From assembly GCF_030542965.1 (NCBI RefSeq), contig NZ_JAUAOA010000018.1, forward strand, positions 1-64,000: a stretch of DNA of 64,000 bases, in the 5' to 3' direction. The stretch comes from Azotosporobacter soli. Lineage in GTDB: Bacteria > Bacillota > Negativicutes > SG130. Position numbers and translations under genes: made by a program. Positions 43,563-50,138 of the stretch are shown piece after piece (the first letter of the stretch is position 1; the number at the start of each line of letters is the position of its first letter). The notes beneath the pieces are model-generated. The model saw only the letters and a program-made list of their open reading frames with translations. It did not search any database and was not told the origin of the DNA.

Positions 43563-43637
43563 GCGCCTGTAGCTCAGTGGATAGAGCACCGGCCTCCGAA
43601 GCCGGGTGCGCAAGTTCGATTCTCGCCAGGCGCACCA
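43563..43637 (+). tRNA. tRNA-Arg(CCG), integration site of the island
   Basis: Acceptor GCGCCTG pairs with CAGGCGC, the anticodon loop CTCCGAA gives CCG, the T-arm has AGTTCGATTCT, and CCA is encoded. From the anticodon loop onward its sequence is duplicated at 46329, marking an attachment site. Confidence 0.96.
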
Positions 43638-43849
43638 TTTGAGAATCAAACCCTCCAGCAAATTTGCTGGAGGGTTTTTTGTGTTTGTGGGGCAATAGAG
43701 AAGTGGCTATAAAGGTATTTGCTAGTATGCAATTTTGGTGTGCGTAAAATAGTGTCAATGATAAAAAACAGCATGGTTTCGAAGGTTTGGCTACTTTAAG
43801 TGGAATAGTATTAAAAAGGCATATATGCATGCCTGACCCCAAGAGACCC
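43594..43849 (+). repeat. Island direct repeat, copy 1 (att core 43594-43659 plus extension)
   Basis: The first 66 bases, from the tRNA-Arg anticodon loop through the CCA end to the left arm of the terminator, are identical to 46329-46394. About 190 further bases match imperfectly, ending near the shared block CATGCCTGACCCC. A crossover in the anticodon loop is typical of tyrosine recombinases that use tRNA genes. Confidence 0.9.
43651..43682 (+). terminator. Intrinsic terminator of tRNA-Arg
   Basis: CCCTCCAGCAAA pairs with TTTGCTGGAGGG and is followed by six T. A variant copy lies at 46386-46416. Confidence 0.88.
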
Positions 43850-43851
43850 CT

Positions 43852-43938
43852 ATTCAGATGACGCTTGACACGTATAGTCATTTGATGCCGGATATGCAGG
43901 AAACGGCTCTTAAGGCATTACATTTAATGGATATGTAG
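43852..43938 (+). pseudogene. C-terminal remnant of a tyrosine recombinase/integrase
   Basis: The frame ending at the TAG at 43936-43938 reads MTLDTYSHLMPDMQ and then ETALKALHLMDM. This is the characteristic C-terminal end of phage-type integrases, where the active-site Tyr sits in the TYSHL motif. Nothing upstream in this frame resembles the rest of the protein, so only the last 28 or so codons survive. It lies just inside the tRNA-proximal end, where integrase genes normally sit. Confidence 0.75.
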
Positions 43939-44005
43939 TTATAGCAATGAGGTAAAAGACTCAATGATGGATAGTTAAAATTAAAAATGAATCAAATTTA
44001 ATAAA

Positions 44006-44084
44006 ACGCAAAAAAAAATGCAGGAATATAGGTGTTTTGGAAAGAAGTAAGTGTTAATTCCTTAAAAACGCAAAAAAAAAATGC
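44006..44084 (+). promoter_or_regulatory. Repeated CGC-A-tract-TGC motif upstream of the AAA operon
   Basis: CGC, nine A and TGC (44007-44021) recur as CGC, ten A and TGC (44069-44084), 62 bases apart. They lie in the leader of the AAA ATPase gene and could be operator or bent-DNA sites. Function is inferred only from position. Confidence 0.35.
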
Positions 44085-44140
44085 GTATTTAAAATACTTT
44101 TAATAAGGTTTTTAGAGGAAGATTGTAAGGAGGAAATATT

Positions 44141-45448
44141 ATGTTGTTAGAAAAAATTCGAATCGATGGTTTTAGAAATATTGTTGATACTACAATTGAT
44201 TTCAACGAGTACATTTCAGCTATACTAGGATTTAATAATTATGGTAAAACAAATTTGTTGACGGGTATAGAATTTGCTAAAAATTTTATTGATAATTCAC
44301 CTAAAACAAAAACTAGAATGATGAATGATTCTAATATGGTTCCTATCAATAATTTAACTGCGGATAAAGACTTTTCCTTTGGGATGGAATTTATTTCAAG
44401 TGAAACTGGGGAATCTGTGAAGTATTCCTTTTCTTTTGAGTGGGTTAAAAATGAGGAGCAAGGGGCTCGCATAAAAGAGGAGTCATTAAGTATAAAAGAA
44501 AAAAATTCATCTAAGTATAAAAACTATATAAAACGAAATTTTGAAAATGGTTATTATAGAACTACATTATCGGGGCGAGTAGATAATAAAATAGAGGTTA
44601 AAAAAAATGAGCTTATTTTGAATAAGCTAAGAGAACATGAGGATATTATCTATGCGAAGATATTGAAGGAAATTTTAAATGCTAAATTTGAAGTTAATTC
44701 TTTCTTCGGTATAGATGCAGCATTAAAAGGAATTGCAATTACAAATGGAAATGATGTTGATTTTAAATATACCTTTGATCGCGAAAATGGAGCAGATATT
44801 GCGAGAGTAATTTACAATATACAAAAGAACTGTCCAGATAAATATCAATTACTTATTAATTCACTACAGAGTTTGATCCCAACAATTGAAAAATTTGAAC
44901 CTGTTTGCATAGATTTTAAAGAGCACTTTATGGCTAGTTTTGAAGCTGAACTTGAAGAGAAAATACCATTTAAAGTTCCGGAAAAATACTATGATATTCG
45001 AGTTAAAGAAAAATACAATAATCAGTCAACTAGCGTACAGTCATTGTCATCAGGAACAAAGAGGATCATAGTATTATTAACATCGGTAATTATAGCTGAT
45101 CTCGAAAATGTTAAATTAATGTTGCTTGAAGAACTAGAAAATTCAATTCATCCATACTTATTTCAAAACTTATTGATAATTTTAAGTGAAATTGCCAGTA
45201 ATTGCCGAATATTAATCAGTAGTCATTCACCATACTTGGTAAGATACCTTGACTTAGAAAATATTTATGTTGCGGTTCCATCGAATTCTGGTTTAGCTAA
45301 GTTTAGAAAAGTTAAAAAATCTATGCGTAGAAGTTTGTATAGAAACGCGGAAGTAAGTGATATGAACGTAGGAGACTATCTCTTTGATTTGCTTATTGAA
45401 AGTGTAGAAGATCAATCAGATATTTGTCATTACATAGATTGTGATTGA
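44141..45448 (+). CDS. AAA/ABC-type ATPase of a two-gene defence module
   Basis: The 435-residue protein has an SMC/OLD-like ATPase fold. Walker A is GFNNYGKTNLLTG (residue 29 onward), the ABC-like signature VQSLSSGTKRIIVLL is near residue 305, Walker B is KLMLLEELENSIHP and the His switch is RILISSHSPYLVRYLD. A central insert of about 200 residues separates the motifs. AAA ATPases of this sort occur with TOPRIM/RloB partners in abortive-infection systems (AbiL, PARIS-like). Strongly AT-rich base composition sets it apart from flanking genes. AAGGAGG precedes the ATG, and the partner gene follows after 15 bases. Confidence 0.82.
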   Translation: MLLEKIRIDGFRNIVDTTIDFNEYISAILGFNNYGKTNLLTGIEFAKNFIDNSPKTKTRMMNDSNMVPINNLTADKDFSFGMEFISSETGESVKYSFSFEWVKNEEQGARIKEESLSIKEKNSSKYKNYIKRNFENGYYRTTLSGRVDNKIEVKKNELILNKLREHEDIIYAKILKEILNAKFEVNSFFGIDAALKGIAITNGNDVDFKYTFDRENGADIARVIYNIQKNCPDKYQLLINSLQSLIPTIEKFEPVCIDFKEHFMASFEAELEEKIPFKVPEKYYDIRVKEKYNNQSTSVQSLSSGTKRIIVLLTSVIIADLENVKLMLLEELENSIHPYLFQNLLIILSEIASNCRILISSHSPYLVRYLDLENIYVAVPSNSGLAKFRKVKKSMRRSLYRNAEVSDMNVGDYLFDLLIESVEDQSDICHYIDCD

Positions 45449-45463
45449 GAAGAAAGGAGTAGT

Positions 45464-46063
45464 ATGGCGAAAAAAACAAAGCAAAATATTAAAAAAGGCA
45501 TAGTTATTTTTGTTGAAGGTGAAACAGATAAGTTTTTTTATGAAGCTCTTTTAATTTATTTTAAAACTATCTCAGAATCTGAAATTATAGTAGAAAAACC
45601 TTTAATATTTAATCTAAAAGGTGTAGGTAATTATAATGCCAAAGCGCTAAGTAAGTTTAAGAAGGATTGTGTAGAAAAATATCCAGACGTGAGTTTTACA
45701 GTTTTTTGTGCTTATGATACAGATATTTTTGAATATGCTGTAAAGCCAGCAGTTAATTGGAGTAGGGTTGAAAAGATTCTTAAGGATAGTGGTGCAAAAA
45801 AGGTAATTCATTTAAAAGCCAAGCGTAACATAGAAGATTGGTTTATGCTTGATAGTGAAGGTATATGTAGATATTTAGGTATGAAATTAACTACGGTAAC
45901 TGGGAAAGATGGATTAGATAAGATTAAAAAATTGTTTAAACAGAAAAATAAAGTTTATCAAAAAGGATCTTATACAGAAAAATTCATCCCATATTTAGAT
46001 TTAAGCCTTTTGTATCAACAACTTCACACTACTTTAGAGCCATTAAAAAAAGCTTATCAATAA
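45464..46063 (+). CDS. TOPRIM/RloB-like partner of the AAA ATPase
   Basis: The 199-residue protein starts with a basic tail (AKKTKQNIKKG) followed by IVIFVEGETDKFFYEALL, a TOPRIM-like motif with the catalytic Glu. A later acidic pair (FCAYDTDIFEY) and the conserved NIEDWFMLD segment follow. The pattern resembles RloB/AbiLii proteins, presumed nucleases or toxins controlled by their ATPase partner. It is cotranscribed with the ATPase gene, with AAAGGAG before its ATG. The exact family (RloB versus other TOPRIM families) is uncertain. Confidence 0.72.
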   Translation: MAKKTKQNIKKGIVIFVEGETDKFFYEALLIYFKTISESEIIVEKPLIFNLKGVGNYNAKALSKFKKDCVEKYPDVSFTVFCAYDTDIFEYAVKPAVNWSRVEKILKDSGAKKVIHLKAKRNIEDWFMLDSEGICRYLGMKLTTVTGKDGLDKIKKLFKQKNKVYQKGSYTEKFIPYLDLSLLYQQLHTTLEPLKKAYQ

Positions 46064-46328
46064 TGATTGCTTTCATTATGAAAGATTTCCCGAGTTGCAA
46101 TCGGATCAAGGGAGTAAGTTGCTTTTTCCGGTCTGAAATTCTCATATGAATTGGAACTGAAACGGGCAGATCTTCGAAAGAACAAAGAATACATAGTTAA
46201 TTAGGAGGACAATACGCCATAAAACTGCTTGGGAAGAGCAGACTGAATAAAAATAGCTCTAACCCTAAAGTGTTGATATTACTGACTCCGTGGACTCCGT
46301 AATATTATGTAAAATCGCCCGGTATGTA

Positions 46329-46590
46329 CTCCGAAGCCGGGTGCGCAAGTTCGATTCTCGCCAGGCGCACCATTTGAGAATCAAACCCTCCAGCGAATTT
46401 GCTGGAGGGTCTTTTTGCGTTTATGGGGAAATAAATAGAGAGGCTATAAAAATTTGCGACTCTGTACGGCTCTGTAGTTTTGGCGTGCTTAAAATAGTGG
46501 CAATGATAAAAAACAGTATGGTCTCGAAGGTTTCAACTATTTAAGTGGAATAGCAAAAAGACATATATGCATGCCTGACCCCGAGAGACC
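46329..46590 (+). repeat. Island direct repeat, copy 2 (partial tRNA-Arg plus extension)
   Basis: The first 66 bases are identical to 43594-43659 and comprise the tRNA-Arg 3' part from the anticodon loop plus the terminator left arm. About 190 bases of imperfect homology follow. The sequence upstream of the anticodon loop does not form a tRNA 5' half, so this is an attachment-site scar. The surrounding stretch 46064-46880 holds no gene that I can support. Confidence 0.9.
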
Positions 46591-46880: not shown

Positions 46881-47651
46881 GTGAATACTATGCAAGATAA
46901 TCGACGAGATTTTACAGAAAATGAAAAAATGCTTCTGCATACAGAAGTAAAAGGAAGATGTCCTCTTTGCGGCGATATATTAACACATGCAAAAAACAAT
47001 AAAATTAACAAAACATTTGAAGTTGCACATATTTATCCGGCTAATCCACGACATGATGAAGTGGTTTTATTGGCTAATGAGGAAAGGTTAAGTGCTGATG
47101 TGAATGATATGAAAAATGTAATTGCGGTATGCAGAAAATGCCATAGGATTTTTGATACTCCGCGTACTGTTGAAGAGTATAGGAAATGGTTTCGGCTTAA
47201 GAAAAAACTAATTCAAGATGCAGAAGTGAAAAGCGCATATGCAGTGTTCAATATCGAGCATGAAATTCGATTCGTATTAGAAAGACTTAATGAACAGTTT
47301 CTGGAATCAGAAATTGTTCCGCTAAGTTATAATTCATTAAAAGTTGACCAAAAGGCAAACAATACGCTGCCTTACGTGATTAAGCAATCAATAAAACGTG
47401 ATGTAGTGGATTACTTTGACTACGTTAGGAGAATTTTTATTGAAATAGATAAGAATACACCATATAAATTTGATACTTTAGCGGCTCAAATAAAGGGATT
47501 TTATAGTAAGTGTATGCAAATAAATCAAAATCAAGAATATGTATATAATGCATTAGTTGACTGGATAAACGAAAAGACCGACTCATATTCTCGAAAGTCA
47601 TGTGAAATTATTGTTGCCTACTTTATTCAAGATTGCGAGGTTTTTTCATGA
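46881..47651 (+). CDS. HNH nuclease effector of an ABC-three-component (ABC-3C) system
   Basis: The 256-residue protein has an N-terminal zinc-stabilised HNH domain. The first Cys pair is in GRCPLCGDIL, the first His in FEVAHIYPANPRHDE, the Asn in DMKNVIAVC, and the second Cys pair and His in CRKCHRIFD (about residues 30-95). The C-terminal helical half probably docks to the other subunits. The last base group ATGA overlaps the start of the middle-component gene. Effectors of many kinds, including nucleases, are known to occupy this slot. Start GTG 46881 or ATG 46890. Confidence 0.82.
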   Translation: MNTMQDNRRDFTENEKMLLHTEVKGRCPLCGDILTHAKNNKINKTFEVAHIYPANPRHDEVVLLANEERLSADVNDMKNVIAVCRKCHRIFDTPRTVEEYRKWFRLKKKLIQDAEVKSAYAVFNIEHEIRFVLERLNEQFLESEIVPLSYNSLKVDQKANNTLPYVIKQSIKRDVVDYFDYVRRIFIEIDKNTPYKFDTLAAQIKGFYSKCMQINQNQEYVYNALVDWINEKTDSYSRKSCEIIVAYFIQDCEVFS

Positions 47652-47887
47652 TATTACCTAATAAGCTAATAAATTTTCACGATAGTATAATGGGGAAATT
47701 GGTGTATATATTAGATGAAGTTATCACAGAAAAGCAAAATATTGCCTGTCTCTATGACAAAGTAAAGAATAATTTTGAAGATATAAACCAGTATATTTTG
47801 ACTTTAGATGTTCTTTGTGTTCTTAAAAAAATAAGAATGGATGAGGAAAAGCAGGTGATTATATATGTTGGAAAAAATAATTTGTGA
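47648..47887 (+). CDS. ABC-3C middle component (MC6-like)
   Basis: The 79-residue protein begins MILPNKLINFHDSIMGKLVYIL, matching the usual opening of middle component 6 proteins, small winged-helix-like linkers between the ATPase and effector of ABC-3C systems. The ATG overlaps the HNH stop as ATGA, and its 3' end overlaps the ATPase gene by 23 bases, so the three genes form one coupled operon. An upstream in-frame ATG (47633) inside the HNH gene is less likely. Confidence 0.78.
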   Translation: MILPNKLINFHDSIMGKLVYILDEVITEKQNIACLYDKVKNNFEDINQYILTLDVLCVLKKIRMDEEKQVIIYVGKNNL

Positions 47888-49490
47888 TAAATTTGTTCAA
47901 AATGAAATTACATTTAAGCCGAGTCTGAATGCTGTTGTAGGAGATACGATTGCATCGAACTCTATTGGTAAATCCACGATGTTGATGATTATTGATTTCG
48001 TTTTTGGTGGGGAAGGCTATATTAATAAAAATCACGATGTAATAGATCATGTAGGACACCATGAATTCAAATTTGTTTTTAAATTTGAAGGGGAGAGGAA
48101 ATACTTTAAGAGAGATACTGGTAATTACAAACAAGTGTCTGTCTGTAATCAGAATTTTAGTGTGGAGAAAGACATTAAGGTTGAAGAATTTACCAGTATA
48201 TTGCAAGAAAAATATGCCTGTGAACTTGAAGATGTATCTTTTAGAGACATGATTGGGCGCTATTTCAGAGTTTATGGGAAAGAAAATTTAAATGAAAGAA
48301 AGCCGATACAATATTTTGAAAAAGAAGGAGCAGCCGATTCAATTATTGCACTCATTAAGCTCTTTGATAAGTATAAAATCATTAGAGAGTTTGAAAAGCA
48401 AATCAAAAAACTAAGTGATGAACGTGCTCTCTTGATTGCGGCGGCAAAACAAGATTTGATTCCACGGATGACAAGAACAATTTTCAATAAAAATGAAAAA
48501 AAGTTAGAAGATTTAACAAAACAATTAGAGTCTTTGAAATCAGAAATTGTAAGCACATCTGTAAGTCTTGAAGCCTTAATTTCAAACGAAGTTTTAGCTC
48601 TTCAGAAAGAGAAAGGTATGTTGTTGATCCAGGTAAATGTCTTAAAAAATAGATTAAATCGAACTCAAATTAATCTCAAAAATAAGAATGTAAATATTCA
48701 ACCGGAACTTGACAAGTTAATTGATTACTTTCCGGATTTTAATGTTGAGGAAATAAGAAAAGTAGATATTTTTCATGAATCTATTACAAAAATTTTAAAA
48801 GAAGAATTAAAGGGCGCAGAAAAAGAGATTAAAATTCAATTATTGGAACTTGAGAAAGAAATTTTTCGACTTGATGAAGAAATTAAATCCAAATTGACAA
48901 TAAAAAATGCACCTAAATTTGCAATTGATAAAGTCGTCGAGCTAGCAGCGCAAATAAAACAATTGGATGATGAAAACGGTTACTTTAAGAGGAAAGAAAC
49001 CTTGGATGATAATATAGAAAGCGCAAGGGGAAATTTGGATTCTTTAAAAGCGAAAATTCTTGATGATATGTGTAGTCAAATCAATAGTAAAATGCATGAA
49101 CTAAATAGGGCGATTTATCCAGATGCGCGACGTGCGCCGGAAATTAACATTCATAGTAATAAATATATTTTTAGTACTTATGGTGATACGGGAACGGGAA
49201 CTGCTTTTGCAAATTTGATTACATTTGATTTAGCATTGTTGAGTTTAACTTGCCTGCCTGCGATTGCTCATGACTTACCTCTACTTAAAAACATTGAAAA
49301 TACTGCAATGGGGAATATAGTTAAAATTTATAGTGAATCAAAAAAACAAATTTTTATTGCTATTGATAAGCTGAGCTCATACAGCGAAGAAACTGTAAAA
49401 ATGGTCGAATCATGTAAGGTGTTGCAACTTTCAAAGGAGAAACTTCTTTTTACACAGAATTGGAAGCGGAGAAAGGAAAATGAAGTGTAG
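47865..49490 (+). CDS. DUF2326-type SMC/Rad50-like ATPase of the ABC-3C system
   Basis: The 541-residue protein has the typical N-terminal ATPase segment (LNAVVGDTIASNSIGKSTMLMIIDFVFGGEGYI, Walker A at about residues 27-42). A long coiled-coil middle (about residues 175-420, rich in Lys/Glu/Leu heptads) and a C-terminal ATPase half with the GDTGTGTAFANLITFDLALL segment follow. DUF2326 ATPases define ABC-3C systems, proposed by comparative genomics to sense invading nucleic acid and trigger the effector. Base composition is strongly AT-rich like its partners. Confidence 0.85.
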   Translation: MLEKIICDKFVQNEITFKPSLNAVVGDTIASNSIGKSTMLMIIDFVFGGEGYINKNHDVIDHVGHHEFKFVFKFEGERKYFKRDTGNYKQVSVCNQNFSVEKDIKVEEFTSILQEKYACELEDVSFRDMIGRYFRVYGKENLNERKPIQYFEKEGAADSIIALIKLFDKYKIIREFEKQIKKLSDERALLIAAAKQDLIPRMTRTIFNKNEKKLEDLTKQLESLKSEIVSTSVSLEALISNEVLALQKEKGMLLIQVNVLKNRLNRTQINLKNKNVNIQPELDKLIDYFPDFNVEEIRKVDIFHESITKILKEELKGAEKEIKIQLLELEKEIFRLDEEIKSKLTIKNAPKFAIDKVVELAAQIKQLDDENGYFKRKETLDDNIESARGNLDSLKAKILDDMCSQINSKMHELNRAIYPDARRAPEINIHSNKYIFSTYGDTGTGTAFANLITFDLALLSLTCLPAIAHDLPLLKNIENTAMGNIVKIYSESKKQIFIAIDKLSSYSEETVKMVESCKVLQLSKEKLLFTQNWKRRKENEV

Positions 49491-49655: not shown

Positions 49656-49695
49656 AAAAGAGGTGAGCGGACGTTAATCCGTTTACCTCTTTTTT
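49656..49695 (+). terminator. Intrinsic terminator near the island's right side
   Basis: AAAGAGGTGAGCGGA pairs (with G-U pairs) with TCCGTTTACCTCTTT, followed by T-tracts. It lies about 165 bases after the ATPase stop, with no gene between. Confidence 0.75.
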
Positions 49696-49759
49696 GTCGT
49701 AATTCGTTTTTCGTGATTTGCGGCCTCCTGATCCCCGTCGCTGCGGTTTTTTCAGAACG

Positions 49760-49975
49760 TTACGTCCGAGGAGAGAAGGACATGGTTTGGCGGGCAAAAG
49801 AGCGGAGACGTGCGACAGGGATGTCGCACGCCAGCAGAGGGTCGACGAAACCGGATGTTTTTAGTGTCAAACGCGCCATGGATGGCATAGCGTTTGACCA
49901 TGGATGGCCCTTATGCTGGGGATGTCGGCGATTGCAGAACGCCAAGCCTTGGCCGACCCGCTGGACATTTTTTGT
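49760..49975 (+). ncRNA. Candidate CsrA-binding RNA (hairpins with GGA loops)
   Basis: Hairpins with GGA in the loop occur in a row. CGTGCGACA-GGGA-TGTCGCACG (49809-49830) is a perfect nine-pair stem and its loop region reads ACAGGGATGT, matching the known CsrA consensus. GTCAAACGC with inner GCCA-TGGA-TGGC (49866-49898) and CCA-TGGA-TGG (49898-49907) follow. Further GGA motifs occur in CGAGGAG, AAGGACATGG, CCGGATG, GGGGATGTC and CTGGACA. No convincing protein is encoded from 49491 to 50202. Transcription and strand are inferred. Confidence 0.45.
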
Positions 49976-50099
49976 TCTGATAAAATCGCAGCGACGCAAG
50001 GGGCCTAGGTGTCGATGGACGAAGCACGACCAAATTCAAATTGCTGGGCCATGCAATCACGTTGAGCGAAACCATCAACCGACAAAAGGCATAAAAAAA

Positions 50100-50138
50100 G
50101 CAGGCGCAGCTTTCAGCATTTGAAAACCGCGCCTGCCA
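50100..50138 (-). terminator. Intrinsic terminator of the pucG-MFS operon
   Basis: GCAGGCGC pairs with GCGCCTGC, with TTTCA/TGAAA nested inside. A seven-A tract on its plus-strand left side gives the U-run for minus-strand transcripts. Confidence 0.82.

What the first reader, a model, noticed from the sequence alone, without database searches (positions are those of the whole stretch)
49760..49975. Row of hairpins with GGA loops, a candidate CsrB-like RNA sponge at the island border
A perfect stem with ACAGGGATGT and further TGGA-loop stems occur in about 100 bases, with around ten GGA motifs in 250 bases. CsrA-titrating RNAs have this form in Gammaproteobacteria; in Firmicutes CsrA is usually antagonised by the protein FliW, so an RNA sponge would be notable. 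The downstream frame ending at 50092 (KFKLLGHAITLSETINRQKA) looks protein-like, so a structured translated region is an alternative.
Basis: partly seen in the sequence, partly recalled or inferred. Interest (0 to 1): 0.6.

Follow-up and report, generated by a model that had tools for sequence, protein, structure and literature searches.

The report
Dispersed RNA-hairpin repeats resembling CsrA sites
The hairpins with GGA loops are one of about 30 scattered copies of a structured repeat whose paired loops match the known docking site of the RNA-binding regulator CsrA; this hints at a genome-wide set of CsrA decoys in Firmicutes-type bacteria, but neither transcription nor binding has been shown.

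Summary
The hairpins are real, and the element is larger than reported: one 271-nt stem-loop (49733-50003; RNA z -8.2), capped by hairpins with ANGGAN hexaloops directly on stems. It is one of about 30 dispersed intergenic copies in this csrA+ (two genes), fliW+ genome. Across 28 distinct copies the stems covary strongly (35 of 41 pairs change on both sides). GGA (28/28 and 25/25) and the closing C-G of hairpin 1 stay fixed, while the two positions that CsrA/RsmE leaves free vary. Another Negativicutes genus carries many repeats with the same two-hairpin core, and a third lineage carries many copies of Rfam TwoAYGGAY, already predicted (2014) to bind CsrA; the window copy itself has no Rfam match. 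So it works like a two-site CsrA RNA, but is not CsrB-like: few accessible sites, no conserved promoter, random orientation to neighbours, and the window copy lies between terminator-like hairpins. Two TwoAYGGAY-rich genomes lack csrA and fliW. A palindromic mobile repeat whose loops serve another binder remains the main rival. Best reading: a REP-like repeat family carrying a conserved double CsrA-type site, acting as dispersed decoys or cis sites (inferred, about 0.55).

The parts
49733..50003 (+). whole structured repeat unit (one long stem-loop)
   Evidence: RNA fold z -8.2; about 30 homologous copies in the genome; covariation
49733..49758 (+). 5' arm of the terminal stem, CCCCGTCGCTGCGGTTTTTTCAGAAC
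   Evidence: pairs with 49974-50003; compensatory changes among copies
49809..49830 (+). hairpin 1, 8-bp stem with hexaloop AGGGAT (CANGGANG motif)
   Evidence: GGA 28/28, closing C-G 28/28 among copies, stem cells 97.7% paired
49831..49919 (+). hairpin 2, its apex split in this copy by an extra hairpin module
   Evidence: fold; GGA 25/25 in copies; insertion seen against uninserted copies
49866..49898 (+). extra hairpin module with hexaloop ATGGAT (49878-49883)
   Evidence: fold; module also found in other copies of the repeat
49899..49906 (+). CATGGATG, the original hairpin 2 loop motif, displaced by the extra module
   Evidence: alignment to uninserted copies
49974..50003 (+). 3' arm of the terminal stem, GTTCTGATAAAATCGCAGCGACGCAAGGGG
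50029..50045 (+). conserved 3' box (ACCAAATTCAAATTGCT here), origin of the protein-like reading
   Evidence: aligned by eye with TATCAAGTTNAATTTGC of other copies
49660..49695 (+). terminator-like hairpin with T run upstream of the repeat
   Evidence: read directly; not listed by the scanner
50099..50137 (-). terminator-like hairpin of the convergent MFS gene, downstream of the repeat

Best explanation
The feature is one copy of a REP-like family of about 30 dispersed, intergenic, palindromic repeats. Shown here: each copy folds into a long stem capped by two adjacent hairpins; the stems are kept by compensatory changes; the loops are held at CA-N-GGA-N-G. Inferred: when a copy is transcribed on its GGA strand, the two hairpins, about 28 nt apart, occupy the two RNA-binding faces of one CsrA dimer. 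Each copy is then a two-site CsrA decoy, or a cis docking site on the transcript that carries it, and together the copies buffer free CsrA alongside FliW. Some copies gained a third or fourth site through an extra GGA hairpin. Certainty by step: conserved structured repeat family about 0.95; CsrA as the binder about 0.55; decoy pool rather than cis control about 0.35.
For: About 30 copies. 41 pairs: 90.1% of cells paired vs 65.4% shuffled; 35 pairs change on both sides. In hairpin 1 the loop C, GGA and G are 28/28 and A 26/28, GGA 25/25 in hairpin 2, with N positions free; this matches the published ANGGAX-on-stem rule (PMC4005645). Same two-hairpin core in about 38 genomes of genus g59 and TwoAYGGAY in g88 and g82. 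TwoAYGGAY was predicted to bind CsrA (PMC4333381). Two csrA and one fliW in the genome. 13 of 14 near-complete element-bearing genomes have csrA (my tally), though they are few lineages.
Against: No binding or transcript data. No conserved promoter; no sigma-70-like site near the window copy, which lies between two terminator-like hairpins. No orientation bias. G315 (rated 100% complete) and G317 lack csrA and fliW yet keep intact elements. Some own-genome hairpin 1 loops lack the N (CAGGACG), a weaker form in PMC4005645.
Confidence: 0.55

Rival explanations
1. A mobile palindromic DNA repeat (REP or MITE type). Its hairpins are recognised as single-stranded DNA by a transposase or other host protein, and the GGA loops reflect that recognition, not CsrA.
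For: About 30 dispersed copies, tandem arrays, random orientation, long inverted repeats, no promoter. Persists in csrA-lacking relatives. Copies in g88 share a near-identical hairpin 1, as after recent spread. The G-U over A-C excess would also arise from one-strand ssDNA.
Against: The fixed and free loop positions coincide with the CsrA/RsmE rule. The core is kept with unrelated outer parts in another genus. IS200 transposase genes lie near only two copies.
Confidence: 0.3
2. A standalone CsrB-type sponge sRNA gene at the island border, as first proposed.
For: GGA hairpins and csrA are present.
Against: About 30 copies, few accessible sites each, no promoter, terminators on both sides.
Confidence: 0.07
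3. A structured protein-coding region.
For: An open frame (136 aa, GTG start, 49713-50123) crosses the element.
Against: Differences between copies follow base pairing; the 3' box lies at variable spacing from the stem, and stops such as TAG follow the stem in several copies.
Confidence: 0.02

Closest known systems
TwoAYGGAY RNA (Rfam RF01731, clan CL00106)
   Same: Two adjacent hairpins with ANGGAY-like loops, second hairpin with an asymmetric internal loop, enclosed by an outer stem; many copies per genome in related Negativicutes.
   Different: The window copy has no match; the best own-genome copy gets 32.1 bits against a cut-off of 43. Outer stem, 3' box and extra hairpin module differ.
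CsrB/CsrC, RsmX/Y/Z sponge sRNAs
   Same: GGA in hairpin loops matching the CsrA/RsmE site; stable RNA fold.
   Different: Two to four sites per copy rather than many, no own promoter seen, about 30 dispersed copies, Negativicutes with FliW present.
REP/BIME/MITE-type intergenic palindromic repeats
   Same: Dispersed, intergenic, inverted-repeat units in tens of copies, some in tandem arrays.
   Different: A conserved double-hairpin core with a protein-site-like loop motif; no consistently associated transposase found.

Membership tests
TwoAYGGAY (RF01731) | Score above Rfam's gathering cut-off (43 bits) | tested here: not met
   Window: no match at E up to 10; best own-genome copy 32.1 bits
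TwoAYGGAY (RF01731) | Two adjacent hairpins with AYGGAY terminal loops | tested here: met
   Met in topology; loop is ANGGAN rather than strictly AYGGAY (AGGGAT in the window hairpin 1)
CsrB/RsmZ-type sponge sRNA | GGA motifs exposed in hairpin loops | tested here: met
CsrB/RsmZ-type sponge sRNA | Many sites on one RNA | tested here: not met
   Mostly two apical sites per copy, up to four with extra modules
CsrB/RsmZ-type sponge sRNA | Own promoter and terminator, a discrete transcript | tested here: inconclusive
   No sigma-70-like site; other promoter types not excluded; no RNA-seq
CsrB/RsmZ-type sponge sRNA | Binds and titrates CsrA | not testable with these tools
   csrA is present; binding needs an assay
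CsrB/RsmZ-type sponge sRNA | Transcription under a GacA/UvrY-type regulator | not tested
   not examined
REP/MITE-type repeat | Many dispersed intergenic palindromic copies | tested here: met
REP/MITE-type repeat | Associated Y1 (RAYT or IS200-type) transposase or target-site duplication | tested here: inconclusive
   18 IS200-like genes, mostly at contig ends, two near a repeat, one broken divergent Y1 gene; duplications not measured

The most novel reading that the evidence does not exclude
A selfish or domesticated REP-like repeat has spread a double CsrA site to tens of loci in several Negativicutes lineages. It works as a genome-wide distributed CsrA buffer beside FliW, in place of one dedicated sponge sRNA, and some copies grow by gaining further GGA hairpins.
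Probability: 0.3. Interest if true: 0.82.

Novelty: new variant of a known kind. Interest (0 to 1): 0.62.

Why it matters
CsrA-titrating RNAs are established in Gammaproteobacteria, while in Firmicutes FliW is the known antagonist. A covarying double CsrA-type site in many copies per genome, in several Negativicutes lineages, would mean that CsrA control outside Proteobacteria may rest on repeats rather than on one sRNA gene. It also makes the 2014 prediction for TwoAYGGAY, for which I found no validation in the papers held, directly testable, with dozens of natural variants and csrA-lacking relatives as controls.

Tried and rejected
A standalone CsrB-like gene: rejected on copy number, promoter and number of sites. 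Coding frame: rejected. Raw GGA count as evidence: dropped, only slightly above shuffles. A pattern for the 3' stem in genome contigs gave three hits; the two I read look like coding-sequence chance matches and the third (Variovorax) was not inspected. Two exact patterns in viral contigs gave nothing. G-U versus A-C asymmetry was tried as proof of an RNA strand: G-U is kept at 42% and A-C at 15% of the shuffled number (difference reached by 16 of 500 shuffles), but one-strand ssDNA would show it too. IS200 as the mobiliser: near only two copies. Searches for papers joining CsrA with REP sequences or with Negativicutes found nothing useful.

Full report
OBSERVATION. The stem with ACAGGGATGT is exact at 49809-49830. 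It belongs to a larger unit: 49733-50003 folds as one long stem closed by CCCCGTCGCTGCGGTTTTTTCAGAAC and GTTCTGATAAAATCGCAGCGACGCAAGGGG, z -8.2 against dinucleotide shuffles. The GGA count is only slightly above shuffles (9 vs 7.1); what stands out is that apical loops are ANGGA loops, against about 4% of loops in shuffles.

IT IS A REPEAT FAMILY. A DNA search found 16 matching stretches in the own genome. A covariance model of the core (R1) found 30 places, 28 with E below 1e-7. They include tandem arrays: three on C21 at 330-base spacing, and groups of three on C11 and on C14 at 1-2 kb spacing. They lie between genes by my ORF picks, a mechanical call. Orientation to neighbours is mixed: upstream gene co-directional 12, opposite 10, nine antisense to both neighbours.

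COVARIATION. In 28 distinct copies, 90.1% of cells pair (65.4% shuffled, 31-43% when partners are slid), and 35 of 41 pairs show changes on both sides, beyond all 500 shuffles. Some of these sequences trained the model and the alignment is fitted to it, which favours the structure, but the slid controls and the size of the effect leave little doubt. Column statistics: hairpin 1 loop C 28/28, A 26/28, GGA 28/28, G 28/28, with the two intervening positions free; hairpin 2 loop GGA 25/25. Duss et al. (PMC4005645) define the high-affinity CsrA/RsmE site as an ANGGAX hexaloop directly on a stem, with N and X free. The conserved and free positions coincide with that rule. About half the copies lack N in hairpin 1 (CAGGACG), which that paper gives as a lower-affinity form.

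RELATIVES. Class-wide searches (380 genomes) with R1, and then with a combined two-hairpin model R2, found the same two-hairpin topology, with unrelated outer parts, in about 38 genomes of one genus (g59), up to at least 14 copies each, the scoring cap. R2 was trained partly on g59 sequences, so its high g59 scores are not independent; R1, trained on the own genome only, had already found 11 g59 genomes. One g59 element reaches 40.8 bits with Rfam TwoAYGGAY (cut-off 43). An own-genome copy gets 32.1 bits. TwoAYGGAY is in clan CL00106 together with a CsrC family. A 2014 paper (PMC4333381) predicted that it binds CsrA; I found no validation in the held papers. Whether the three lineages are homologous or convergent is not proven; the shared topology favours homology.

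CSRA. The genome has csrA beside fliW in a flagellar locus and a second csrA. 228 of 380 class genomes have csrA. Among near-complete genomes with elements, 13 of 14 have csrA (my tally), but these are only a few lineages. The exception, G315, and the less complete G317 lack csrA and fliW and still carry intact copies. That is either recent loss or independence from CsrA. Copies in g88 are too alike to measure decay.

TRANSCRIPTION. No conserved promoter precedes the copies. The window copy has no sigma-70-like site and lies between a terminator-like hairpin at 49660-49695 (read by eye; the scanner did not list it) and the terminator of the convergent MFS gene. This weakens the sponge reading most for this particular copy.

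MECHANISM. Two loops about 28 nt apart would suit the two RNA faces of one CsrA dimer (own knowledge of dual-site binding, not tested here). Copies with the extra hairpin module have more sites; the pattern search placed six exact matches of that module inside these repeats and one weak match elsewhere. I therefore favour dispersed two-site decoys or cis sites, carried by a repeat that spreads like REP elements; the mobile-DNA rival keeps about 0.3.

THE PROTEIN-LIKE FRAME. The 3' flank of nearly all copies carries TATCAAGTTNAATTTGC at variable spacing from the stem; the window version gives the KFKLL reading. It is not a conserved frame.

SUBMISSION NOTE.

Noticed in passing
43563-46433: The 3' part of the tRNA gene at 43563-43634 and following bases (43594-43697) are repeated at about 46329-46433 (105 bp, 95% identity), bracketing an AT-rich AAA_21 ATPase gene and a 199-aa gene: probably a small tRNA-targeted island.
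   Followed up: partly
46881-49490: A gene with HNH and ABC-3C CTD11 domains and a DUF2326 gene, likely an ABC-three-component defence-type system next to the repeat.
   Followed up: partly
L023:1127-2103: The second csrA (70 aa) lies between two small genes with no Pfam match; a possible partner or antagonist pair was not examined.
   Followed up: no
L027-L056 (R1 alignment A5): Besides the loops, an internal loop is nearly invariant in own-genome copies: CAA on the 5' side and GC-A-G on the 3' side. No binder is known.
   Followed up: no
L166-L171; window 49863-49887: A small GGA-hairpin module (AGTGTCNNNCGCGCCANGGATGGCA) occurs inside several copies of the repeat, twice in each of the two C4 copies.
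   Followed up: partly
L011:1350-1433: A c-di-GMP-II riboswitch precedes a response-regulator/GGDEF gene that lies between two repeat copies.
   Followed up: no
G000 contig ends (L147-L164): 18 IS200-like Y1 transposase genes in two near-identical groups, mostly at contig ends; two lie near a repeat.
   Followed up: partly
G315 and G317 (genus g88): Two genomes lack both csrA and fliW, while congeners G314 and G318 have both, a natural control for the CsrA hypothesis.
   Followed up: partly
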